From a virus: DNA of 64,000 nucleotides. Each line of letters begins with the position of its first letter. Position 1 is the stretch's first letter. Shown here one piece after another: positions 29,321 to 47,399 of the stretch. The stretch spans positions 20,624 through 84,623 of IMG/VR virus record IMGVR_UViG_3300031707_000005; one strand, written 5' to 3'. The notes under the pieces were generated by a model. That model was not told where the DNA came from and made no database searches. It saw nothing but the letters and a program-made list of their open reading frames with translations. The translations under genes were made by a program, and so were the position numbers.

Positions 29321-31573
29321 CTATATACTTTCTTGCTGAATTGGTTCCGGTTCGAGTTTTTCAGACAAGCTATCTTGAATCAAATTTCTGAGATTCGAAT
29401 TTCGAATTGTTTCGCGTTCATTGTGGATGGCAAGAGAAAAAGCTCTTGGGTCTCCAAACATGAAGACCTTCTTTTTAGCACGAGTAATCGCAGTATAAAC
29501 TAAATTTCTATATAACATTATGCCATACTGCATGGTCATTGGCATCAAGACGAAATCAAATTCTTGTCCTTGAACTTTATGCGCTGTGCAAGCATATGCA
29601 ACTTTTAGAACATGCCTAGCTTCTTCAATCTTGAACAAGAAAACCTTATCTATGTATCTCGGAACAGATGAATCCTGATCAAACCAGTCAAATATTTTTA
29701 CTTCAACTTCATCCTGTTTAATTGAAACACGGGTTACTTTCCCAACGTCACCATTGAAGATCATTCGTTCATAGTCATTCTTGACTATCATGACACGATC
29801 ACCTTCAAACAAATCAACATTACCATGTTTAAGTTTTGTAGCTTTCCCAGAAATAAAATCAGGGTTCAAAACTCCACGAAGTCGTTTATTCAAAGTATCA
29901 ACACCAAGTTCACCGTTATACATCGGTGCAATAACCTGGAAATTCATATCTCTTGATTTCAACGCAGTAGACATTTTACATATTTCGTCTGCAACATCTT
30001 CAATTGGAATGTTCATGTAAACAAATTGAGACGATGTATTAGTTCGAGTATCTACCGCATTTCCTTTCAAAATGGCATGAGCAACAGTAATAATATCTGA
30101 TTGCTTCTCTTGACGATAAACACGAGTAAGAGACACGTGAGGAACGTCACGACACTGCATTAAACTATTCAAAACATAGCCAGCTCCGACAGATGGGAGC
30201 TGTGCTGAGTCACCAACCATTATTACGATAGTTGTCGGCAATAACGCGGAAATTAGGTTAAATAGAGTTGAACTATCAACCATTGACATCTCATCAACGA
30301 TAACAGCATCAACATGGAAATGATTTCCGGAATAAAACTCCCAACCACCATCTTTTTTGTAACCGAGTGCTCTATGGATCGTATAAGCAGGTTTTCCGGT
30401 AACTTGAGATAAACGCTTAGCAGCAATACCGGTAGGAGACATCAAAGTATAATGAAGACCGGCTTTTTCAAAAAGATTAACGAAAGCTGACACGAGAGTA
30501 GTTTTGCCGGTACCTGGATATCCAGATATAACACAAAACCTTGAGCGCTCAAGCATAAGAAAAGCATCTCGTTGATCATCAGATAATGAAATTCCGCGGG
30601 ATTCTTCAAAGTCATTCAAGATCAACTTTAGATCACCCATAACACGCGGAGGCTGACGAACGATTTCCGATATATACTTAGCAGACTCAGATTCATATTT
30701 CCAATTATGAGCTAGGTAGATGAAATCACCAGAACAAAAAATGTCACCAGAACTCTGGAGTGACTTCAAACCCGAGAAAAAATGCGAGTCAGACATATAC
30801 TCGCCATGAGAAAAAGCAGACACGGAGTGCCTTCGAAACATTTTCTTTGACATATACTCGAGAATTTGTCCAGAAGTGCAATAAACGTGTCCATCTGATG
30901 CAGCAAGTTCACGCATGACGAACGTAATCATTGCACAAATACGTCTCGAATCATCTACACCGATACCGGTTTTCTGAGCCGCACTGTCCGCAGTGGCAAA
31001 CCCGACACTTGGACATTCACAAAGTCTATATGGATCTTCACGAACAATATTTTTAGTTTGAATACCAAATTTCGTAAAAACATTTCTTACCTGAGCTGCA
31101 TTTAACCCAAGATCCGTTAAAAAGATCGCGACAGTTCGACTTTCTGAGGCTTCAGTCCATTCCCTAACTATAGCATCGGCCTGAGTCTTTGTAAGAAATG
31201 GCAAACTACGAACTTGTTCCGGATCAGTATTTAAAGTATTAACTAATTCATCACCGAGGGCATCATATAATCTAGTGGCAGTAATCATTCCAATAGAAGG
31301 AACGTTAGCCATTAAATATATTATGATGCCGTTTCGTCCTTTTTCAGGAAGGACTTCACAGTCGGTGGCATTGAATTGCTTGCCGAATTTTTCATGAACT
31401 TCGTAACCACCGGTAAACTTAGCTTTCAGACCAGTTGCGATAGACACTCCAGGAAATGTTCCACGAATCGTAACTTGCTGTGAATTGTTATCAAGCGTGG
31501 CCTTAACAATGTAAAAACCGGTTTGACGATTCTGAAATTGAATACCAGATACTTTTGCGGTAATTTGCTCCAT
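29321..31573 (-). CDS. RecD2-like superfamily 1B DNA helicase
   Basis: The start ATG at 31573 has GAGGTG seven bases upstream. The roughly 750-residue protein has the RecD2 order. It has an OB-like N-terminus (TAKVSGIQFQNRQTGFYIVKA), helix-hairpin-helix segments (VPSIGMITATRLYDAL, LPFLTKTQADAIV), then Walker A ISGYPGTGKTTLVSAF near residue 352 and VIVDEMSMVDS (motif II). UvrD_C_2-type AYACTAHKVQGQEFDFVLMP and YRNLVYTAITRAKKKVFMFG close the protein. It is a 5'-3' helicase for recombination or replication. It could replace the missing T4 Dda-type helicase. The gene follows the ligase C-half. Confidence 0.93.
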   Translation of the reverse strand: MEQITAKVSGIQFQNRQTGFYIVKATLDNNSQQVTIRGTFPGVSIATGLKAKFTGGYEVHEKFGKQFNATDCEVLPEKGRNGIIIYLMANVPSIGMITATRLYDALGDELVNTLNTDPEQVRSLPFLTKTQADAIVREWTEASESRTVAIFLTDLGLNAAQVRNVFTKFGIQTKNIVREDPYRLCECPSVGFATADSAAQKTGIGVDDSRRICAMITFVMRELAASDGHVYCTSGQILEYMSKKMFRRHSVSAFSHGEYMSDSHFFSGLKSLQSSGDIFCSGDFIYLAHNWKYESESAKYISEIVRQPPRVMGDLKLILNDFEESRGISLSDDQRDAFLMLERSRFCVISGYPGTGKTTLVSAFVNLFEKAGLHYTLMSPTGIAAKRLSQVTGKPAYTIHRALGYKKDGGWEFYSGNHFHVDAVIVDEMSMVDSSTLFNLISALLPTTIVIMVGDSAQLPSVGAGYVLNSLMQCRDVPHVSLTRVYRQEKQSDIITVAHAILKGNAVDTRTNTSSQFVYMNIPIEDVADEICKMSTALKSRDMNFQVIAPMYNGELGVDTLNKRLRGVLNPDFISGKATKLKHGNVDLFEGDRVMIVKNDYERMIFNGDVGKVTRVSIKQDEVEVKIFDWFDQDSSVPRYIDKVFLFKIEEARHVLKVAYACTAHKVQGQEFDFVLMPMTMQYGIMLYRNLVYTAITRAKKKVFMFGDPRAFSLAIHNERETIRNSNLRNLIQDSLSEKLEPEPIQQESI

Positions 31574-31586
31574 GAGCACCTCGAAA

Positions 31587-32390
31587 TCAAGAAGCGTTGG
31601 AACCCATCATCTTATACAGGTCAGACTCAGAGATTACCTGAACACCATGTTTCTTAGCGCTCTTCATCTTGGAACTAGTGGTATCAGAGTCATTAGTAAC
31701 AAGGTATGACAAACCGGAACCAACAGAACTTTTCGAAACCCCTCCAGCGTCCATAATCATTTTTTCAACAGCTTTTCTAGGTTTTGAAGTAGATCCGGTT
31801 ATACAAAAAGATTTTCCAGAAAGAAGACCACCAACCGGTTTTTTAAGATCAAGAACCTCTGACAAGTCGAGTATAGCACGGTGATGTTCTTGGAGACCGT
31901 CAAAAACTTGCCTCGCGGTCACTTCTCCAATATTCGGAATTTTCAAAAGTTCTTCGTGAGTAACCGCTAAAACCTTGTCAACAGTATCATACCCGGCTTG
32001 AACGATATCCGTAGCCGTAGCAAGAGCAAAATTTGGAATGTTAAGTGACGCTAGGAGCAACTCAAGAGGAATTTTCTTACCTGCATGAAGAACTTCATAA
32101 CATTTCTGCGCCATTTTCTGGCCGGATGTACACATAACTAAGTCATCGATAGTTAATTTATATAGATCGGCAATGGATTGTATGCGAGGATTATTTGGAT
32201 CAGTGAGCTCGTCTATGAGGGCATCACCCCAATGAAGTAGACCAAGTCTCATAATCCATACTTTTATAGACCCGGCAAGCTTCGCAGAGCAAGACCGATT
32301 TCGACACCAAAGGAAGAAACCCTCGGTGGAAGTTGGTCCATTACATATAGGACAAAAGTCCGGAATTTTAAAGCGATCCTGGTCTCCCAT
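31587..32390 (-). CDS. ligB: NAD-dependent DNA ligase, C-terminal part (Zn finger, HhH, BRCT)
   Basis: The 267-residue protein lacks the adenylation domain. It contains exactly the LigA C-terminal domains: a four-Cys zinc finger (FCPICNGP...WCRNRSC, 13-35), helix-hairpin-helix repeats (LNIPNFALATATDIV, IPNIGEVTARQVFDGL, 115-170) and a BRCT domain (LSGKSFCITGSTSKPRKAVEKMI, 190-265). The N-terminal half is encoded on the opposite strand at 33100-34218. T5-type phages also split this ligase into two genes, and the symbol follows that usage. Both parts should assemble to seal nicks. Confidence 0.88.
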   Translation of the reverse strand: MGDQDRFKIPDFCPICNGPTSTEGFFLWCRNRSCSAKLAGSIKVWIMRLGLLHWGDALIDELTDPNNPRIQSIADLYKLTIDDLVMCTSGQKMAQKCYEVLHAGKKIPLELLLASLNIPNFALATATDIVQAGYDTVDKVLAVTHEELLKIPNIGEVTARQVFDGLQEHHRAILDLSEVLDLKKPVGGLLSGKSFCITGSTSKPRKAVEKMIMDAGGVSKSSVGSGLSYLVTNDSDTTSSKMKSAKKHGVQVISESDLYKMMGSNAS

Positions 32391-32419
32391 AAGGAAGAGT
32401 ACAGGACAGAAAGTCAGCT

Positions 32420-33004
32420 TTACTCAGCAGCTTGTTCCTGAGTCTCTTCAGGAGCTTCATAATCTTCTTCAGATTCCTCCTCTTCCTCTTCTTGCCCCTC
32501 TTCCTCAGCTCCGGAAGGCTCCTGGCTCATATCAGGTGTTTCAGTATCGTAGGAAGGAGGGGTCTCACCAGCGGGAGTTCCACCGGCACCGGCTTCAACA
32601 TCATCCAGTGATTGGTTCTTCGGGATAGGCGCCCCTCCCTCATCACCATAGGTATATTCAGACTGAAGCATCTCATATTTACCTTCATAAAAGGCCTTCG
32701 AGAAGGTCGAGAGTTCGTCTCCAATAGCAAGAACAGCTTCCGAAATCTTTGAGAGCCGGGCGAGTTCCTCCCCAGCAAAGTCTCCCTGAAGTCGGGCGAG
32801 TTTAGCATATAAAACGTGAGTGTCTTTTAAGACGTCAGCAACGTAAGAATTAACGCGTTGCCACTCACCGTCACGATCTTCGGTAGCAACACGATTAAAA
32901 ATACTTTGTCGTACTTCAGAAGCTATACGGGAAAATTCAGTCCGAGGCTCATCAGACGTGGCTTTTTGAACTTCGGATGCAGCGTTGCGAAATATAGTGG
33001 TCAT
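32420..33004 (-). CDS. Acidic hypothetical protein between the two ligase genes
   Basis: The 194-residue protein has a helical first 115 residues with TEFSRIASEVRQSIFNRVATEDR and AKLARLQGDF. A disordered tail follows and becomes a Glu-rich run (EEEGQEEEEEE) at the end. The R-I-A-S and R-V-A patterns are those of the virion-module proteins, so this may be a virion protein rather than a replication protein. The leader holds CCCTTT paired with AAAGGG (33011-33037), and the latter is the likely ribosome-binding site on the minus strand. Confidence 0.65.
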   Translation of the reverse strand: MTTIFRNAASEVQKATSDEPRTEFSRIASEVRQSIFNRVATEDRDGEWQRVNSYVADVLKDTHVLYAKLARLQGDFAGEELARLSKISEAVLAIGDELSTFSKAFYEGKYEMLQSEYTYGDEGGAPIPKNQSLDDVEAGAGGTPAGETPPSYDTETPDMSQEPSGAEEEGQEEEEEESEEDYEAPEETQEQAAE

Positions 33005-33099
33005 AGTTTTCCCTTTACAGCAGAAGGTAACAAAGGGTCTAGAAAATTAGAAAGGATACTATACTATTAAGTAAAGAACTCTCGAGCGTAGTTTTTTAG
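33005..33099. promoter_or_regulatory. Divergent intergenic region between ligase N-half and acidic gene
   Basis: The 95-base AT-rich region separates divergent genes, so it should hold promoters for both. TATACT-like boxes (about 33058-33068, ATACTATACTATTA) could serve as -10 elements for the plus-strand ligase gene. The hairpin CCCTTT/AAAGGG at 33011-33037 covers the minus-strand ribosome-binding site. No -35 box is defined with confidence. Confidence 0.45.
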
Positions 33100-34218
33100 A
33101 TGTCACAAAATCGTATCAATGAACTAAGGTCAAGTCTCAAAAAATGGAGAGACGCATATTATAACTTGGATCCGAAAGTTTCAGACCAAGAATATGACTC
33201 AGCCAGGGATGAACTGGCAGGACTATCTCCAGATGATACGGAAATTATTGCAATAGGTGCGACACCATCTCAACACTCTGTATGGGAAAAAGTTCGACAC
33301 GAAATACCGATGGGATCACTCGGAAAAGCAAATTCTGAGAAAGAAATTGATGACTGGATTGAAAAAACAGGCGCAAAAGAGTGGTTCATAACACACAAAA
33401 TTGATGGATCATCCATGGAGCTCGTTTACAAGTCCGGAAAACTAATAAGATGCGTAACTCGAGGGGATGGAATTATCGGTGAAGATGTGACAGTAAATGT
33501 GTCAAAAATTCCATCAGTCCCGAAATCTTTACCGATGCCTATAGATACGATTGTACGCGGGGAAATAGTGATGTTGAAGAGTGTATTCACTCAGAAATAC
33601 TCAGAAGAATATGCAAATCCACGAAACACAGCAGCCGGAAAAGTGCGTGAAAAGAAAGGTGGAGGAGAAGCGTGTAAAGACCTTGAGTTTCTCGCCTATT
33701 GGATTCATTTCGAAAAACAGGCAGATAAGCAAAATGGCATGTTTGCATCCATACTTTGGCTCAAAGAGAATGGATTTAAAACTCCGACATGCACTGTAAG
33801 TCGAAATCTAGATACTATTAAATCGGTATATACTGATCAGTCGACAAAAAGAGACGATATAGATTATGAAATAGATGGAATGGTTGTTTCCGTCGAAGAT
33901 TTAAATCTAATCGAAGAGTTAGGTTCAATTAATGGGCGACCAAGAGGTCAGATCGCGTGGAAATTTGATCCCGCCATGCGAGAAACAAGAATAGTTGACG
34001 TAAAATGGCAAGTCGGTAACTCTGGAAGAATAACGCCTGTAGCAGTAGTAGAACCGGTTGATGTCGGAGGAGTTACAATAACAAATATATCCCTACATAA
34101 CCTATCACTATTTCGAGATCTCGCCTTAAATAAAGGAAATCGAGTCCTTGTGTCACGTAGAAACGACGTCATTCCGTTTTTAGAAAAGAACCTAGATATT
34201 GATATTGATCAAGAGTGA
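33100..34218 (+). CDS. ligA: NAD-dependent DNA ligase, N-terminal adenylation and OB part
   Basis: The 372-residue protein holds the NAD-binding Ia region (AYYNLDPKVSDQEYDSARDEL), the adenylation site ITHKIDGSSMELVY with catalytic K100, then TRGDGIIGEDVT (motif III region) and DYEIDGMVVSVED. The closing segment GRPRGQIAWKF...VGNSGRITPVAVVEPV through LVSRRNDVIPF is the OB fold. It stops exactly where LigA's zinc finger begins, and that piece is encoded at 31587-32390 on the other strand. It is one of few plus-strand genes in the replication region. The two products must meet in trans, unless the N-half works alone. Confidence 0.92.
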   Translation: MSQNRINELRSSLKKWRDAYYNLDPKVSDQEYDSARDELAGLSPDDTEIIAIGATPSQHSVWEKVRHEIPMGSLGKANSEKEIDDWIEKTGAKEWFITHKIDGSSMELVYKSGKLIRCVTRGDGIIGEDVTVNVSKIPSVPKSLPMPIDTIVRGEIVMLKSVFTQKYSEEYANPRNTAAGKVREKKGGGEACKDLEFLAYWIHFEKQADKQNGMFASILWLKENGFKTPTCTVSRNLDTIKSVYTDQSTKRDDIDYEIDGMVVSVEDLNLIEELGSINGRPRGQIAWKFDPAMRETRIVDVKWQVGNSGRITPVAVVEPVDVGGVTITNISLHNLSLFRDLALNKGNRVLVSRRNDVIPFLEKNLDIDIDQE

Positions 34219-34227
34219 CATTACAAT

Positions 34228-34419
34228 ATGATTAAACAACACAGATGGTCAGGATGGCCCGGGGCTTTCTGCCTAGATTGCTTCGCAGAAGACCAAGGCG
34301 AAGCATGCTTAGTTGACGAATGTTATGGCGCCATACAGTGCATTAAAGGACATATTCAATGTGAAGAACATGAATATATCGGTTGTGAAAAACACAAAAA
34401 TTCACCATGCACTAAATAA
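34228..34419 (+). CDS. Small Cys-rich zinc-binding protein, 63 aa
   Basis: Eight Cys and several His in 63 residues (FCLDCF, ACLVDEC, AIQC, HIQCEEHEY, GCEKHKNSPC) suggest one or two zinc sites. It begins MIKQHRWSGWPGAFCLDC. I recall similar small proteins in other large phages, without known function. It lies 10 bases after the ligase gene on the same strand and stops three bases before the convergent hpt gene. Confidence 0.72.
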   Translation: MIKQHRWSGWPGAFCLDCFAEDQGEACLVDECYGAIQCIKGHIQCEEHEYIGCEKHKNSPCTK

Positions 34420-34421
34420 AA

Positions 34422-34937
34422 TCAGACTTGAATTTCACCGATATACGGAAGGTTCCGATGTTTCTCCTGATAATCCATACCATATCCAACAACAAACTTA
34501 TCTTCAATAGTAAACCCGGTATAATCGATTTTCACTGGAACTCGAGTTCTACACGATTTATGTAAAAGAGCACAAATCGAAATGGAAGCTGGTTCTCTAG
34601 TTTGAAGAATTTTAATTAAGTGTTGAATTGTAAGTCCAGAATCAACAATATCCTCAACAATAAGTATATCTTTTCCCTTAATAGACCGTGTTAAGTCATG
34701 AGTGATCATAATGGAACCGGAAGACGTTCCACCATTATACGAACTAATACCGAGAAAATCAACAAACGTATCCGGAAGCTTAATGGTCCGAATCAGATCA
34801 CCAGCAAAAACAAAAGACCCCTTTAACACAGGAATCATCGTTAATGGACTCCTAGCGAAATCCTGAGTGATAGCCTGTCCGATCCACGAAATGCGATTAG
34901 CGATACTAGACGCTGATATCAATTCGCGAATCGGCAT
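34422..34937 (-). CDS. hpt: Hypoxanthine-guanine phosphoribosyltransferase
   Basis: The 171-residue protein has the full type-I PRTase layout. It has a hood and N-terminal core, FVDFLGISSYNGGTSSGSIMITHDL, and the PRPP motif ILIVEDIVDSGLTIQHL (about 93-110) with the conserved Glu-Asp pair. It also has KIDYTGFTIEDKFVVGYGMDYQEKHRNLPYIGEI, the purine-contact loop and closing. It would salvage hypoxanthine or guanine into IMP or GMP. This is unusual in phages and fits the purine-focused set here (purZ, nrdJ, dNMP kinase). The gene is two bases from the next start. Confidence 0.95.
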   Translation of the reverse strand: MPIRELISASSIANRISWIGQAITQDFARSPLTMIPVLKGSFVFAGDLIRTIKLPDTFVDFLGISSYNGGTSSGSIMITHDLTRSIKGKDILIVEDIVDSGLTIQHLIKILQTREPASISICALLHKSCRTRVPVKIDYTGFTIEDKFVVGYGMDYQEKHRNLPYIGEIQV

Positions 34938-35202: not shown

Positions 35203-38200
35203 TCAACTACAACCTGTCGTAGTTCCACATGAGGAACAAAGATAACAAGAACCATTACGTTGAGTTATGTTACCACAACGAGCACATGGAGGACCGCCAA
35301 GGTTCTTACGCGGCGTCTTTATCGTAGCATCAGTAGAATGTAACGGAGGCGGCGGTATTGAAGGCGGCGATGAATGGTATTGATCCGATACTTCATCCTT
35401 CGCAATGCTTTCATTAACGTCGTTGTCCGACTCATCAGAACGATTAGAAAGACCGGAGTGTTCCCCATTATAATAATGAACATCAAGAACTTTGAACATA
35501 TAATCATATAAACTCTTAGCAAACCGAACTTTCTTGTTCGTTGTCATCCCAGCGGGTTCAAATCGGGTATCGATGAAACTTGAAATAAGTTTCGGTAAAG
35601 GAATCCCGTATTGAATGGCAATAGAACAGAGCTGGGTGAAACCATCTATCAGACCAGATACAGTGCTACCGGGTTTCCCGAGTTTAAGAAAGATTTCACC
35701 CGGACGACCGTCAGGATACTCACTAACAATAAGATATCCCTTATATCCGTCAATTTCAAACTTATGCCGCCAACTCTTAACATCATTCGGCATTTTCTCA
35801 CGACGAACAACAGGAACTTGAATTTCACGAACAACTTCTCTGATGTTCATGTCAACGGCTTTTAAGGCCGCTTGCAGTGAATCCTTGGAGTCCTTCGTCG
35901 TGAGAGGCTGAGACGCCTTACACTTATCACGATATAGAGCTATACACTTCAAACCGAGACGCCACGATTCTTCATAAATCTTAGCAATCTCGTCAGAGGT
36001 AACGCTCTCAGGAAGATTAACAGTCTTGCTCATCGCACATGTAATAAGTGGCTGGATGGCAGCCATCATTTTGACATGCGCCATAGGCGATAGATACCGC
36101 GCCGATGGACCGGCAGGCATCGCAGTGTCGAAAACATGAATATGCTCGTCCTTTAGACCGGGAGCTCCTTCTATCGTGTCATTAGATTCGACATGATTGC
36201 AAATCTCTGCAACTTCATCTGTCGAATATCCGAGATTCACCAGGGCCTCGCGAACACCGAAGTTGATGAGCTTCATTACGCCGCCACCGACGAGCGACTT
36301 ATAACTCACAAGTGAAAACGCCGGTTCGATACCAGTAGTGTTCATTCCCATCAGGAACGATATAGTTCCGAGTGGGGCCTGCAGTGTGGCTTGAGAGATA
36401 TTATAGCCGTACTTTTCACCAAGAGAGATGGCTTCTTTCCAGACTTCAGCGGACAATGAAACCACGTCATCATTGACCGGATCCTTCGGAAGGTGCCAAC
36501 GCTCGATGATTTTTGCATCAGCTTCCTGATGCATTCGCATCACGCGAAGCATATCTTCACGGTTCTTCTCGAATTCAGAGAATGCGCCGACACGAGCAGC
36601 AAGCTTTGCTGATGTTAGATAAACAATTCCGGTCATGAGAGATGCCATGCGAGCGGCAACAGCACGACCCTCATCGGAATCATATCCATAACCGAGATTC
36701 ATGACGAGCGCACCAAGATCACCATAGTTAGTGCCAATGGGACGAAGCTTTATTGAATTAGACCCGATTTCGTCAGTCGGATATGCAGCCTTCGCAACAA
36801 TAGCCATCTGAGCGGTACTAAAGATTCTCGTGGCTTGAGTAAATCTCTCAGGAACAAATTTGCGGCCATCGAAAAACTTCGTCAGGTTAATCGCACAGAG
36901 ATTACAGGCTGTGTTGTCAACATGAAGGAATTCACTACAATTATGAGCAACAATCCCGTTTGCGATGAGCGAACTAGTTTCAGGCTCGGTAATGTCGTAA
37001 ACGGGAACAATCTCACCATTGTTAATCACACGGACAACATCATCTGTCCATTTATCGCGGCCGTTATGATTAATTGAATCAGGAATATCGGAGAATCGAG
37101 CTTGTTTCCTATCAGAAAGCAATCCGATTGATTTCATAAGATTTCTGAAAGTTTTAAGACTCTGGCCAGTGATAACAAGATCATTTGTCTTCTCTTTCGA
37201 GAAATACGTTCGAGTTTCGCCCGACACTGTCGTATATGAAAACGTCGGTTTATCGTTAGGACGACGATCTTTGTAAAGAGTGCTGTTAACACCAAGATTC
37301 AAAAGAAGATCCTGGACTCCGCGTAGAAGTTCAAGACTAGTAGAACTAAAACGAGCGTCAACATTCTTCTTCGGTTGAATATTGAAAGTCCCATCTGCAG
37401 AAAAAAGACCAGCAAGAAATGCAAGTTGTTCCTGAACTGTTGATCGAAAAACGGCATCCATGACTTTTTTAGTCGGAGCTTTAGACCCAGGTTCACAAGC
37501 CCAGACCAACATGGATTCCCAAATGGCTTTCCTGTGAATCCGAATATAATCCGGGCTTTCACCGACAGATCCATTTTGATATTTTTGAGAGAATGGGATG
37601 TCTTGATCACGGAAAAATGCAAGAATCTTATCCATTGCATCTTTGTCATCTTTACCAAAAACGAGCCCAACTTCGTGAGTATTTCTACAAGGAAGTGCTT
37701 TCAAGATCCATCCATCACCAACAATCCACCCAGCAATCTTGTGCCACATGAGATCAAGACCAGATGACTCCGTCGAGTATGCACCAACTCCGGCTTGCAA
37801 ACAAAGAACACTATCTTCCGTCAGATCGGATGCCTCTACCCACCCATCAGTCGTCATAAGACGATGATCAGGGGTTACCTTCAGTATTCTACCTCTTCTC
37901 GTATGAACTTCAACAACATTTTTCACACCAGTCGGAAAAACTGTGGCTGCTTTCAAAACAGGTCCATCTGGTGTTTGAACGAGAGTCAAAAATTTCGAAG
38001 AACAACCTGATGACTCGAATTCTGCACACAAATCTTCAATACGTACTAAGCCAAGCTCAGTGGCAATGCGAGTATCGGGATGGAAGCATGGATTTGAAGC
38101 ACGAATCTTCCCATTCTTTGGGGTAGTGTGCCACTTGTTTATATTGTCGGAGAATTGAACGCCCGGGTCACCACAACGCCACGCAGCATCGGCAACTTCT

Positions 38201-39219
38201 TTCCAAATTTCACGAGCTTTGTAGTTATGAACTACTTTTCCACTCTTACGCTCACGAGTTTGCCATGAACCGTCATCGAGCATGGTTTGCATAAACGCGT
38301 CAGGAACAGATACAGAGTGATTTGCGTTCTGATATGGAACTATTTTGTATGCACCATTCGGGTCGTCATACTCTGCAGAATAACCAATAGAAACAAGATC
38401 ATGAGCAAGCTTCTCCGACCACGACTTGCAACGAATGAAACCGGGACGACCATCACGTGTTTCAAGAATGTCAGGATGATCCATATCCATAACAACCATC
38501 TTCGCTGCGTTTCTCGTAGCACCACCCGATTTCATCGCACCAGCGTATGAATTATTCCCCTGCATCCAAGACATCGGACCAGAAGTATACGAACCAGCAG
38601 AAATCTTTTCATAAGAAGAACGGAGATTTGATAAATTAGCACCGGAGCCGGATCCACCACGGAAAATGGTAAGCTCTGACGTCTGAAAACGCATAATGTC
38701 ATCAAGAGAATCTTCAACACCAGAAATGAAACAAGCCGAAGCTGCTTGTTTACGACCTTCAACACCAAGGTTAAACCAAACCGGAGAATTAAATGCTCCG
38801 TATTGATGCAAAAGAGCATGAATAAGCTCTTCTTCAAATACTTGAGCATCAATTTCAGTATTGAAAAAGTTCTGTTCTTCCGCCCAATTTCGAATGGCAC
38901 AACAAACACGAGTAAACATTTGCTTTACTGATGTTTCACGAACACCATTAACAACACGAAGATATTTATCTGCTACAACATTTACGTTATTTTGAGTCCA
39001 CCAAGCAGGAACCTCAATATTCTTTTGTTCGAAAACAATCTCACCTTTACCATTACGAATACAGGCATCAGCAGTCTTCCATTCAACTTGGTCAAACGGA
39101 TGAGATCCTTCTGAGGTAAATACACGAGGCCAATGACCCGCATCGCGTGATATCAAGTCCTTAGTGGAGTGAGCCCTAAGGTTTACTACTGGTGCGGATA
39201 TAGCCTCAGTGTTTGACAT
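35203..39219 (-). CDS. nrdJ: Class II (B12-dependent) ribonucleotide reductase with intein
   Basis: After splicing out a 383-residue intein the enzyme has 955 residues. It shows NrdJ features: QYGAFNSPVWFNLG (early loop), FQTSELTIFRGGSGSGANLS, then NP-CSEFLHVDNTACNLCAINL with the catalytic Cys, GTISFLMGMNTTGIEP, and the C-terminal double CxxC (CARCGN...CYLCSSCG) for electron transfer. It reduces ribonucleotides without oxygen or an iron subunit, needing host or imported cobalamin. Strong AGGAGG is upstream of the ATG. It feeds dNTPs to the phage replisome and shares the operon with clamp-loader delta. Confidence 0.95.
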   Translation of the reverse strand: MSNTEAISAPVVNLRAHSTKDLISRDAGHWPRVFTSEGSHPFDQVEWKTADACIRNGKGEIVFEQKNIEVPAWWTQNNVNVVADKYLRVVNGVRETSVKQMFTRVCCAIRNWAEEQNFFNTEIDAQVFEEELIHALLHQYGAFNSPVWFNLGVEGRKQAASACFISGVEDSLDDIMRFQTSELTIFRGGSGSGANLSNLRSSYEKISAGSYTSGPMSWMQGNNSYAGAMKSGGATRNAAKMVVMDMDHPDILETRDGRPGFIRCKSWSEKLAHDLVSIGYSAEYDDPNGAYKIVPYQNANHSVSVPDAFMQTMLDDGSWQTRERKSGKVVHNYKAREIWKEVADAAWRCGDPGVQFSDNINKWHTTPKNGKIRASNPCFHPDTRIATELGLVRIEDLCAEFESSGCSSKFLTLVQTPDGPVLKAATVFPTGVKNVVEVHTRRGRILKVTPDHRLMTTDGWVEASDLTEDSVLCLQAGVGAYSTESSGLDLMWHKIAGWIVGDGWILKALPCRNTHEVGLVFGKDDKDAMDKILAFFRDQDIPFSQKYQNGSVGESPDYIRIHRKAIWESMLVWACEPGSKAPTKKVMDAVFRSTVQEQLAFLAGLFSADGTFNIQPKKNVDARFSSTSLELLRGVQDLLLNLGVNSTLYKDRRPNDKPTFSYTTVSGETRTYFSKEKTNDLVITGQSLKTFRNLMKSIGLLSDRKQARFSDIPDSINHNGRDKWTDDVVRVINNGEIVPVYDITEPETSSLIANGIVAHNCSEFLHVDNTACNLCAINLTKFFDGRKFVPERFTQATRIFSTAQMAIVAKAAYPTDEIGSNSIKLRPIGTNYGDLGALVMNLGYGYDSDEGRAVAARMASLMTGIVYLTSAKLAARVGAFSEFEKNREDMLRVMRMHQEADAKIIERWHLPKDPVNDDVVSLSAEVWKEAISLGEKYGYNISQATLQAPLGTISFLMGMNTTGIEPAFSLVSYKSLVGGGVMKLINFGVREALVNLGYSTDEVAEICNHVESNDTIEGAPGLKDEHIHVFDTAMPAGPSARYLSPMAHVKMMAAIQPLITCAMSKTVNLPESVTSDEIAKIYEESWRLGLKCIALYRDKCKASQPLTTKDSKDSLQAALKAVDMNIREVVREIQVPVVRREKMPNDVKSWRHKFEIDGYKGYLIVSEYPDGRPGEIFLKLGKPGSTVSGLIDGFTQLCSIAIQYGIPLPKLISSFIDTRFEPAGMTTNKKVRFAKSLYDYMFKVLDVHYYNGEHSGLSNRSDESDNDVNESIAKDEVSDQYHSSPPSIPPPPLHSTDATIKTPRKNLGGPPCARCGNITQRNGSCYLCSSCGTTTGCS
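36940..38088 (-). other. Intein (383 aa) with LAGLIDADG endonuclease inserted at the nrdJ active-site Cys
   Basis: The intein starts CFHPDTRIATELGLVRIEDL (Cys codon 38088-38086) and ends SSLIANGIVAHN, with the next residue Cys of the extein (36939-36937). Block B is TPDH. LAGLIDADG motifs are IAGWIVGDGW and LAGLFSADGTF. The C-terminal HN-Cys is canonical. The extein junction becomes ASNP-CSEF, so the insertion is at the conserved catalytic Cys that gives the mature enzyme its activity. All splicing residues look intact. Confidence 0.93.
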
Positions 39220-41633: not shown

Positions 41634-43088
41634 TCACCATCCGTGATTGACAGAAGCTATCCTCGCAGCAATTCCGAGAATGGATGCCTGTCGAGAGCTA
41701 GCAGTTTCTTGCTTACGCTTCTCTCTAAGACTCTTCGTTGTCTTAGCTGAACCTTCAGGGTTCTCACTTGATGGGATAGTATCAACGTCAATCCCCTGTC
41801 CCTTGAGTTTTTTAACAAGAGACTCGTAGGTCTTCTTATCCTTATCAGAGATCGTCCCTTGTTCAGTTTCCCATTTAAGGCGAGAAATTTTTCGCTCATC
41901 AATACCGCGTTGATAGGACTCTTTCTCGGATTCTTTCTTCATTTCAAGGGCTTCAACATCACCCTCAGTTGTATCACTAAAGAAAGTGTCGTAAAGAACC
42001 TGTTGTTGTGCGGGAGATAGAACGTTCTCAACGAAATCTGTTATCTTAGTGAGAAGCTTTTTTCTCGTATCTCCAACAAATCCGGACCAACGCTTTTCAT
42101 TCTTCTCAACAATGGCTTTTCCAGCCTCGGATTCAGAAAGCTTTTCTTTAAGCTTCGAGGCTTGTTTCATATTCTCTTTAATATCAGAACCGAAGCCACC
42201 TTCGTCTTCATAAAAGATGAGATCAAAAAGAGCAACTTCTTCCGGAGAAAAAGTCTCACGAAGATTCGGAACTTCGTCTTCGAGCAAATCCATGAATTCT
42301 TTAATAGCAGCTTGATCATCAAGCGCACGGCCTAAAGAACTCTCCGGATTGGTCGGCATTCTGCCTTCACCACCAGAAGGATCCCCACCTTCTTCACCTC
42401 TAGTCCCGAACGCTTCATCAATACTCTTAGTCTTTTGACTTTTCCAACCAGCCTTCGGGATAGGCTTAATGGTCGAAATATCGGTACCATCATACTCGAG
42501 GGTTTCCTCGAGTTGTTTCATTCGCTTGTCGTCATCAGGGCCCCATTTTTTAATATGGGTCTTACCTTCGTCTGTATCAAGAAGACGAGATTTTTGTTTC
42601 CCATCACCAACAAGATTCTGATTCTGTTTTCTGAAAAGAAGTTCGCCGTACTCTTCAGCCGGGTCTTTCTTTGATCTAAAACGAGACATCGACTGAGACA
42701 TGGCAGTCGTTTTAACGTTATTTAATATATTATTGAGAGCCTGTTTCCATGTTTTGGCTCCCGGGGAGCCTTTTTTCGTAGGACCACGGAAGTCAAATTC
42801 CGGTCTGTCCTTCCGACCAACGATCTTAATCATGAAGTTTTGAACGGCGTCTAAAGCCTCTGCATAGTCTCCCTGCAGTTCCTTTTTGGCCTTACTGACC
42901 ATCATATTACCGATCTGAGTGCCGTTCAGGTCTATTTCCCCGGCTTGATCAGGGTACTGACGTTTCAGAATTTCAAGGATATGCCGTCCTAGAGATGTCT
43001 CTATGTCTGCAGCAAGACGCAGCATAGCATAAATCAAACGGACTGACGCAGATATATGGGTATTGGCGACTTTAGTGGTCATCGCCAT
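41634..43088 (-). CDS. Hypothetical protein with sigma-like motif and virion-type C-terminus
   Basis: The 484-residue protein is helical and charged. Residues about 80-95 (AEALDAVQNFMIKI) resemble the sigma region 2.2 pattern seen in the protein at 43111, and EVALFDLIFYED is at about 290. The C-terminus, ASSRQASILGIAARIASV, holds the recurrent IAARIAS motif of the virion module. It may be a divergent transcription protein packaged into the virion, but that is inference. It sits directly upstream of the zinc proteins in the same operon. No enzymatic site was found. Confidence 0.6.
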   Translation of the reverse strand: MAMTTKVANTHISASVRLIYAMLRLAADIETSLGRHILEILKRQYPDQAGEIDLNGTQIGNMMVSKAKKELQGDYAEALDAVQNFMIKIVGRKDRPEFDFRGPTKKGSPGAKTWKQALNNILNNVKTTAMSQSMSRFRSKKDPAEEYGELLFRKQNQNLVGDGKQKSRLLDTDEGKTHIKKWGPDDDKRMKQLEETLEYDGTDISTIKPIPKAGWKSQKTKSIDEAFGTRGEEGGDPSGGEGRMPTNPESSLGRALDDQAAIKEFMDLLEDEVPNLRETFSPEEVALFDLIFYEDEGGFGSDIKENMKQASKLKEKLSESEAGKAIVEKNEKRWSGFVGDTRKKLLTKITDFVENVLSPAQQQVLYDTFFSDTTEGDVEALEMKKESEKESYQRGIDERKISRLKWETEQGTISDKDKKTYESLVKKLKGQGIDVDTIPSSENPEGSAKTTKSLREKRKQETASSRQASILGIAARIASVNHGW

Positions 43089-43110
43089 GAATAGGGCACA
43101 AAGGGCTTAT

Positions 43111-46202: not shown

Positions 46203-47399
46203 ATGCAAGAGGGAAAACTGAACGTGTTGTTGGACGCATTCTGGGGGTCATCCGGTAAAGGAAAGACGTCCGCATGGCTTGCCGATAAATTCGGGGTAAC
46301 ACGAGTCTCAAGTTCAAATTTCCCGAATGCAGGTCATACAGCCGCATTTGAAGATGGCACGAAGTTCATAGCAAAAGCTATTCCGACGGCTGCAATCTTA
46401 AAGAAAGTTAAAGGAGTCGGGATGCAGTGCTGGTTATCTCCTGGTTCCGGATATGACTGGAATCAACTAATTAAAGAATGGGTTGAATCTGAAAAGCCGG
46501 AGATCAATATCCACTCACGTGCGTCAATCGTAACAGCAGAACACAAACAACGTGAAGCCAGTGGTTCAGAATCTACGAAGCATATTGCAAGTACGATGCA
46601 GGGTTCAGCCACAGCGATTGTTGACAAAGTCTTACGAAAAGCAGACTGTCAACTTGCAGAAACGATCGACCCGCGCATTATGATTGAGTCTCTATATGAG
46701 TCAAATCCAGTAACGCGTGATATTTTAGATCGTAGCGGAGCTTTACAAGAAATTGATCGAATTCGTGTTGTTGATGCGTTAGTTTTTCGTAAACTAACTC
46801 ATAGAGCACTTCGAAGCGGCCATACTTGGTTACATGAAGGCTCTCAAGGATACGCGCTTTCCATTGATCACGGATCTCATTATCCATTTTGTACGAGTCG
46901 AAACTGTTCAGTTCAAGCTGCCATGGATCATATGGCGGTTCCCCCGTCGATGGTAGGTGATGTTTATTTAAATCTACGAACTTTTCCAATTCGAGTAGGA
47001 AATGTCATTGAAGACGGAGTCCAAAAAGGTTTTTCCGGTGACTTTTATCCTGACTGTCGTGAAATGACATGGGAAGAAGTCGCGGCTGAGTCTGGTATGC
47101 CTCCTGAAGAAGCTAGAATGCTTGCTGAACGTGAAAGAACCACAGTTACGAAGAGAATTCGACGTGTCTGTAATTTTTCGTTTGAAGGACTTAAGGACGC
47201 TGTAGCAGTAAATGGCGCGACGAAACTAGTTATGAATTTTATTCAGTATATTAATTGGGAAGATGCCGGATGTGTTGAATTCGACAAACTTTCAAAAAAG
47301 AGTCGCGAGTTTATTTCGAAAGTTGAAGAAACTGTAAACGTTCCGGTCGTTTTAGTTGGAACCGGAGCACTTCATAATGAAATGATTAGTCGCTTGTGA
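46203..47399 (+). CDS. purZ: PurZ-type adenylosuccinate synthetase (2-aminoadenine pathway)
   Basis: The 398-residue enzyme has a clear PurA/PurZ fold: LLDAFWGSSGKGKTSAWLADK (9-29), then SSNFPNAGHTAAF with the active His, GSATAIVDK, LHEGSQGYALSIDHGSHYPFCTSRNCS, and TTVTKRIRRVCNFSFE. In PurA the loop is WGDEGKGK, where the Asp is the catalytic base. Here it reads WGSSGKGK, so Ser16 replaces that Asp. This replacement distinguishes PurZ, which joins aspartate to dGMP on the way to the 2-aminoadenine nucleotide, as in S-2L and phiVC8. Host PurB would finish the conversion. GGAG lies seven bases before the ATG. Confidence 0.87.
   Translation: MQEGKLNVLLDAFWGSSGKGKTSAWLADKFGVTRVSSSNFPNAGHTAAFEDGTKFIAKAIPTAAILKKVKGVGMQCWLSPGSGYDWNQLIKEWVESEKPEINIHSRASIVTAEHKQREASGSESTKHIASTMQGSATAIVDKVLRKADCQLAETIDPRIMIESLYESNPVTRDILDRSGALQEIDRIRVVDALVFRKLTHRALRSGHTWLHEGSQGYALSIDHGSHYPFCTSRNCSVQAAMDHMAVPPSMVGDVYLNLRTFPIRVGNVIEDGVQKGFSGDFYPDCREMTWEEVAAESGMPPEEARMLAERERTTVTKRIRRVCNFSFEGLKDAVAVNGATKLVMNFIQYINWEDAGCVEFDKLSKKSREFISKVEETVNVPVVLVGTGALHNEMISRL

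What the first reader, a model, noticed from the sequence alone, without database searches (positions are those of the whole stretch)
31587..34218. NAD-dependent DNA ligase split into two genes on opposite strands
The adenylation and OB half (33100-34218, plus; K100 in KIDG) ends exactly where LigA's zinc finger begins. The zinc finger, HhH and BRCT half (31587-32390) is on the minus strand, with an unrelated acidic gene and a divergent promoter region between them. T5-like phages have a split ligase too, but I know of no case with the halves on opposite strands. The pieces would be expressed from different promoters.
Basis: partly seen in the sequence, partly recalled or inferred. Interest (0 to 1): 0.75.

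Follow-up and report, generated by a model that had tools for sequence, protein, structure and literature searches.

The report
Phage DNA ligase split across strands
A group of large, uncultured phages has cut its NAD-dependent DNA ligase into two genes on opposite DNA strands, and the arrangement is kept in 23 other phage contigs, so the two proteins most likely assemble into one working enzyme although each half seems to have its own promoter region.

Summary
Confirmed, and stronger than stated. LigN (33100-34218, +) carries domain Ia, adenylation domain and OB fold; LigC (31587-32390, -) carries zinc finger, HhH and BRCT. Together they cover a full LigA model (TIGR00575 1-378 and 385-652). 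An acidic-tailed gene and a 95-bp divergent spacer lie between them. The order LigN(+) | acidic(-) LigC(-) RecD2(-) recurs in 23 other IMG/VR contigs (LigN 44-74% identical), which excludes an assembly inversion. Active-site and zinc residues are kept, both halves are under purifying selection, and each half's tree puts the opposite-strand ligases in one clade. Several fused relatives sit directly upstream of RecD2, so the N-half lies where an in-place inversion would leave it. Two other jumbo phages are split at the same linker on one strand, with an endonuclease-like gene in the gap, which suggests how the fission started. Closest known: the T5/PR1-type heterodimeric phage ligase (PDB 9hu3), probably an independent fission, halves on one strand. 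Most likely a two-chain ligase assembled in trans; this was not tested biochemically. New variant of a known kind.

The parts
33100..34218 (+). LigN, 372 aa: N-terminal half of NAD-dependent DNA ligase (domain Ia ~33100-33282, adenylation ~33283-33972 with KIDG at 33397-33408, OB fold ~33982-34188)
   Evidence: Pfam PF01653/PF03120, TIGR00575 positions 1-378, PDB LigA hits, conserved motifs
31587..32390 (-). LigC, 267 aa: C-terminal half (four-Cys zinc finger 32289-32354, HhH ~31887-32057, BRCT ~31611-31832)
   Evidence: Pfam BRCT/HhH, TIGR00575 positions 385-652, PDB hits incl. 9hu3_B
32420..33004 (-). Acidic-tailed gene, 194 aa: predicted two-helix hairpin (residues 23-106) plus disordered Glu-rich tail; between the halves in all 24 contigs; function unknown
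   Evidence: ORF, conserved core, AlphaFold2 model, no family
33005..33099 (.). Divergent spacer between the acidic gene and LigN
   Evidence: Sequence; same position in relatives
33030..33041 (.). Conserved element ACAAAGRGYYTA (here ACAAAGGGTCTA), mostly 24-30 nt from the acidic gene's start
   Evidence: Within 1 mismatch in 10 of 16 distinct spacers; shuffle mean 0.03, max 1
33082..33090 (+). Conserved element YYRAGCGTA, 9-10 nt before LigN's ATG
   Evidence: Within 2 mismatches at 8-10 nt in 6 of 16 spacers; shuffle mean 0.3, max 3
29321..31579 (-). RecD2-like helicase, follows LigC; its homologue directly follows fused LigA in several relatives (context gene)
   Evidence: Pfam HHH_RecD2/AAA_30; synteny
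34228..34419 (+). Small ORF after LigN (63 aa) on the same strand; coding status unsure
   Evidence: ORF only, no family

Best explanation
The two genes encode the two chains of one heterodimeric NAD+-dependent DNA ligase. Expected working: LigN binds NAD+ through domain Ia and adenylates itself on Lys100; LigC, carrying zinc finger, HhH and BRCT, grips DNA; the two chains close together around the nick and seal it, as in the PR1 phage heterodimer. The gene pair arose from one fused ligA that sat upstream of recD2: it was cut in the linker between OB fold and zinc finger, and the N-terminal part was inverted in place, so that today LigN is read on the plus strand from the divergent spacer while LigC is read with the acidic gene and recD2. 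Shown by sequence: domain content, conserved order and strands, conserved catalytic residues, purifying selection, one clade for both halves. Inferred: assembly in trans, nick sealing, separate promoters, an endonuclease gene as the agent of fission, the inversion as a single event.
For: Complementary coverage of one LigA model. Same layout in 23 other contigs. Ia residues Y20, D29, D33, motif residues K100, D102, G103, E155, D259, G260, K288 and the four zinc Cys invariant in all 24. pN/pS 0.20-0.27 for LigN and 0.15-0.19 for LigC, RecD2 0.18-0.19. The opposite-strand ligases form one clade in the N-part and the C-part tree (SH-aLRT 99 and 100). LigN and LigC distances correlate beyond RecD2 (partial r 0.45, Mantel p 0.0005). 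In L113, nested in the clade by RecD2, both halves are missing while the acidic gene and RecD2 stay. Solved precedent: 9hu3, PR1 phage heterodimeric ligase on nicked DNA, matched by LigN and LigC. Ancestral order: fused LigA directly upstream of RecD2, e.g. L044, L067, L073, L167, L172. Fission agent in other phages: a TnsA-like endonuclease gene fills the cut in L042 and L069, and L042's closest relative L033 is still fused.
Against: No interaction or activity was tested, and no two-chain model could be run. The position of E. coli LigA Lys290 (from memory: contacts NAD+, important but not strictly essential) is Ser in the window and S/R/T/N in the clade, though most fused phage ligases have Arg there. 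LigN and LigC each also correlate with the acidic gene beyond RecD2, so shared locus history may explain part of the co-variation. No member was seen that shows the intermediate (same-strand split with the acidic gene). Clade phages also carry ATP-ligase-like genes, so the NAD ligase may not be their only one.
Confidence: 0.85

Rival explanations
1. The halves work apart: LigN is a minimal nucleotidyltransferase and LigC a free DNA-binding/BRCT factor acting with RecD2 and the acidic protein in repair.
For: LigC is co-directional with the acidic gene and RecD2; a free BRCT ORF (108 aa by the called start) exists elsewhere in the record of L113; ATP-ligase-like genes are present in five clade records.
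Against: Zinc finger and HhH are fully kept in LigC; both halves are kept together in 24 contigs and absent together in one; PR1 precedent for a heterodimer.
Confidence: 0.08
2. The chains are joined after synthesis: a trans-splicing intein or a split intron makes one polypeptide.
For: Inteins or large inserts are common near this locus: the window's RNR and several RecD2 copies.
Against: Neither half carries intein sequence at the cut; LigN has its own stop and LigC its own start, with tails that vary between members; no Rfam intron.
Confidence: 0.01
3. Assembly inversion, or an invertible (phase-variable) segment.
For: None beyond the odd strand order.
Against: Identical order and orientation in 23 other contigs; no long inverted repeats flank LigN; inversion would not restore a fused frame because the acidic gene stands between.
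Confidence: 0.01
4. A decaying relic: the host ligase or a phage ATP ligase does the work.
For: L113 lacks both halves; ATP-ligase-like genes in clade records.
Against: Low pN/pS on both halves and invariant catalytic and zinc residues across 24 contigs.
Confidence: 0.05

Closest known systems
T5-type two-subunit phage ligase (LigA/LigB; PR1 heterodimer, PDB 9hu3/9i5i)
   Same: Same domain partition at the same linker; two chains; phage NAD-dependent ligase; PR1 solved as a heterodimer on nicked DNA
   Different: Both genes on one strand, LigA upstream of LigB, with at most short genes between; apparently a separate lineage (one clade with ours rejected on joined halves, AU p 0.018; not rejected on LigN alone, p 0.43)
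Fused LigA of jumbo phages (phrog_3869; e.g. L013, L026-L088)
   Same: Homologous end to end, roughly 32-44% identical to the window's halves; in several the gene stands directly upstream of RecD2
   Different: One ORF of about 615-660 aa on one strand; no acidic gene
Same-strand split ligases L042 and L069
   Same: Cut at the same linker
   Different: Halves co-directional, with a TnsA-like endonuclease gene in the gap; no acidic gene
Genes-in-pieces by homing endonuclease insertion (phage Aeh1 nrdA/mobE, T4 topoisomerase/mobA; PMC2988022)
   Same: Phage enzyme cut into two chains that assemble
   Different: There the endonuclease gene stands between the pieces; here the pieces are on opposite strands and no endonuclease lies between them in the window
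Split mitochondrial cox2 of Campsomeris (PMC5374615)
   Same: Fission attributed to a nuclease ORF, found in a screen of segmental inversions
   Different: Animal mitochondrial membrane protein, unrelated enzyme

Membership tests
NAD+-dependent DNA ligase (LigA, EC 6.5.1.2) | Domain Ia, adenylation domain and OB fold with motifs I, III, IV, V | tested here: met
NAD+-dependent DNA ligase (LigA, EC 6.5.1.2) | Four-Cys zinc finger, HhH array, BRCT | tested here: met
   Present on the second chain:
NAD+-dependent DNA ligase (LigA, EC 6.5.1.2) | NAD+-dependent nick sealing | not testable with these tools
   Needs purified proteins
Two-subunit phage ligase (T5/PR1 type) | Two ORFs cut between OB fold and zinc finger | tested here: met
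   LigN and LigC match 9hu3 A and B
Two-subunit phage ligase (T5/PR1 type) | Physical heterodimer | not testable with these tools
   No two-chain prediction offered; known for PR1 (9hu3)
Two-subunit phage ligase (T5/PR1 type) | Halves on one strand, N-half upstream | tested here: not met
   Opposite strands in window and 23 contigs
Two-subunit phage ligase (T5/PR1 type) | Common descent with the T5-type split | tested here: inconclusive
   AU p 0.018 for the joined halves, 0.019 for LigC, but 0.43 for LigN
Split-intein fractured gene | Intein halves at the cut | tested here: not met
   Junction sequences carry no intein

The most novel reading that the evidence does not exclude
The opposite-strand arrangement is kept because it lets the phage make the catalytic chain and the DNA-gripping chain at different times or amounts, so ligase activity is switched by subunit supply, with LigC, the acidic protein and RecD2 forming a repair or replication unit that LigN joins.
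Probability: 0.15. Interest if true: 0.65.

Novelty: new variant of a known kind. Interest (0 to 1): 0.5.

Why it matters
A replication enzyme cut at the same linker in several phage lineages shows that this linker tolerates fission, and the opposite-strand form shows that synthesis from one message is not needed for the pair to persist over long evolution. The clade, with its fused and same-strand split relatives, gives a series in which the steps fused, split, inverted can be tested by biochemistry and by sequence. It also shows where single-chain NAD ligases could be cut for two-part ligase tools.

Tried and rejected
Assembly inversion: rejected by 23 contigs. Invertible segment: no flanking repeats. 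Intein or intron trans-splicing: no sequence for it. Standard sigma-70 promoters and terminators: no more than in shuffles. Scan of bacterial and archaeal genomes with the LigC profile: no relative. The acidic protein: no family, only a helix hairpin with tail; it remains in L113 without either ligase half, so it does not depend on the ligase. Literature search for a phage ligase split across strands found nothing; the library holds open-licence papers only, so this is weak evidence of absence.

Full report
Observation. LigN, 33100-34218 on the plus strand, has 372 residues with the adenylation and OB domains; LigC, 31587-32390 on the minus strand, has 267 residues with HhH, BRCT and a four-Cys zinc finger. 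On the LigA model TIGR00575 they cover positions 1-378 and 385-652 of 652, so no domain is missing or doubled. The record is an IMG/VR virus contig of 84,623 bases with portal and terminase genes in the window.

Conservation. Relatives were sought in viral contigs with each half, with alignments of each half, with the acidic protein and with RecD2. The order LigN(+) | acidic(-) LigC(-) RecD2(-) is present in 23 contigs besides the window; two pairs among these are near copies. Identity to the window is 44-74% for LigN and 39-80% for LigC. One further contig (L010) ends before the LigN position. This excludes an assembly error.

Function kept. Across the 24 copies the domain Ia residues Y20, D29 and D33, the motif residues K100, D102, G103, R121, R153, E155, R175, D259, G260, K288 and the four zinc Cys are invariant. 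Between the window, L002 and L003, pN/pS is 0.20-0.27 for LigN, 0.15-0.19 for LigC, 0.18-0.19 for RecD2 and 0.26-0.38 for the acidic gene; synonymous sites are near saturation, so these ratios overstate the true dN/dS. The position of E. coli Lys290 is Ser in the window and S, R, T or N in the clade, while most fused phage ligases have Arg.

Origin. In trees of the N-part and of the C-part the opposite-strand ligases form one clade. T5-type split ligases fall elsewhere; uniting them with our clade is rejected for the joined halves (AU p 0.018) and for LigC (p 0.019) but not for LigN alone (p 0.43), so independent fission is likely, not proven. Among relatives with a fused ligase, several have it directly upstream of a co-directional RecD2 gene, for instance L044, L056, L067, L073, L079 and L167, L168, L172, L174. 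In the window LigC keeps the place before RecD2, and LigN lies on its 5' side but turned round, as an in-place inversion of the N-part would leave it.

How such a cut can arise. In L042 and L069 the halves are split at the same linker but lie on one strand, and the gap holds a gene with a TnsA-like endonuclease domain (Pfam PF08722 E 7.2e-6 and 8.1e-13). L033, whose RecD2 is almost identical to that of L042, has a fused ligase, so that cut is recent. Nuclease genes also sit at other junctions of the clade's locus: a 577-residue one after RecD2 in L113 (PHROG homing endonuclease/HNH matches), and, named here only from resemblance, a 704-residue ORF between LigN and the acidic gene in L098, a remnant in L022 and a 198-residue HNH-like ORF between LigC and RecD2 in L031. 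Phage enzymes cut by homing endonuclease insertion and still working as two chains are reviewed in PMC2988022. That the opposite-strand clade began this way is an inference.

Loss of both halves. In L113 (a 257-kb contig) the acidic gene is followed directly by RecD2, with no LigN before it. The record has no PF01653 match; the LigC profile finds only a free BRCT ORF elsewhere. By RecD2, L113 lies inside the clade next to L025 (98 support). The two halves flank the acidic gene, so two losses are needed, as expected if neither is useful alone. The contig may be incomplete, and this is a single case. Two ATP-ligase-like matches are found in L113's record and in each of four other clade records tested, so sealing may be backed up.

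Spacer. The 95-bp spacer holds ACAAAGGGTCTA at 33030 and TCGAGCGTA ending 9 nt before LigN's ATG. The first is within one mismatch in 10 of 16 distinct spacers (shuffle mean 0.03, largest 1), mostly 24-30 nt from the acidic gene's start; the second is within two mismatches in 6 of 16 at 8-10 nt before LigN (shuffle mean 0.3, largest 3). The motifs were chosen by eye from these same spacers, and the spacers share descent, so the shuffles overstate the case. The first element has one other exact match in the window, at 43098, also between genes; over the whole window the count is not above chance. They look like signals for the two genes; no transcript data exist.

Structure. AlphaFold2 of LigC gave mean pLDDT 75.7; Foldseek finds LigA chains and 9hu3_B, entitled PR1 phage heterodimeric DNA ligase in complex with nicked DNA. 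TM-scores are low (about 0.4), with uncertain domain placement and a poorly modelled zinc-finger region. The acidic protein is predicted as two long helices with a disordered tail.

Comparison. In annotated T5-like phages LigA and LigB lie on one strand. 911 phage records hold a T5-type LigB match; not all were checked for strand. Where the spread lists show both genes for the same phage, such as Lindwurm, or for near-identical Vibrio records, the strands agree. I found no report of a ligase with its halves on opposite strands, in a library limited to open-licence papers.

Verdict. A real, conserved, opposite-strand split of an NAD-dependent DNA ligase in a clade of large phages; a new variant of the known two-chain phage ligase. 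Function in trans is strongly suggested, not shown.

Noticed in passing
35203-39219: B12-dependent ribonucleotide reductase carries an intein (NCBIfam intein_Nterm at residues 378-456; 1338 aa against about 950 in most relatives); L008, L021 and L022 have similarly long copies.
   Followed up: partly
46203-47399: PurZ-like protein (NF038379 E 4.3e-55, but 187 bits against a cut-off of 300), a hint of 2-aminoadenine DNA or of an adenylosuccinate synthetase relative; other genes of that pathway were not sought.
   Followed up: no
L217:2483-2809 (record of L113): Free BRCT ORF in the contig that lacks both ligase halves.
   Followed up: partly
L128-L135: Five clade records (L113, L002, L014, L017, L006) each hold two PF01068 (ATP-dependent ligase-type) matches; the window's own partial record has none.
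   Followed up: partly
L004, L018, L022 (RecD2): RecD2 ORFs of 1105-1529 aa against about 745 usual, probably inteins or other inserts.
   Followed up: no
32420-33004: Acidic-tailed helical-hairpin protein conserved in 26 contigs, always before LigC or RecD2, function unknown.
   Followed up: partly
43098-43109: Second exact copy of the spacer element, between two minus-strand genes, 9 nt before the start of 41634-43088.
   Followed up: no
34422-34937: Phosphoribosyltransferase-domain gene (PF00156 E 4.1e-28), convergent with LigN; homologues near LigN in L017 and L097.
   Followed up: no
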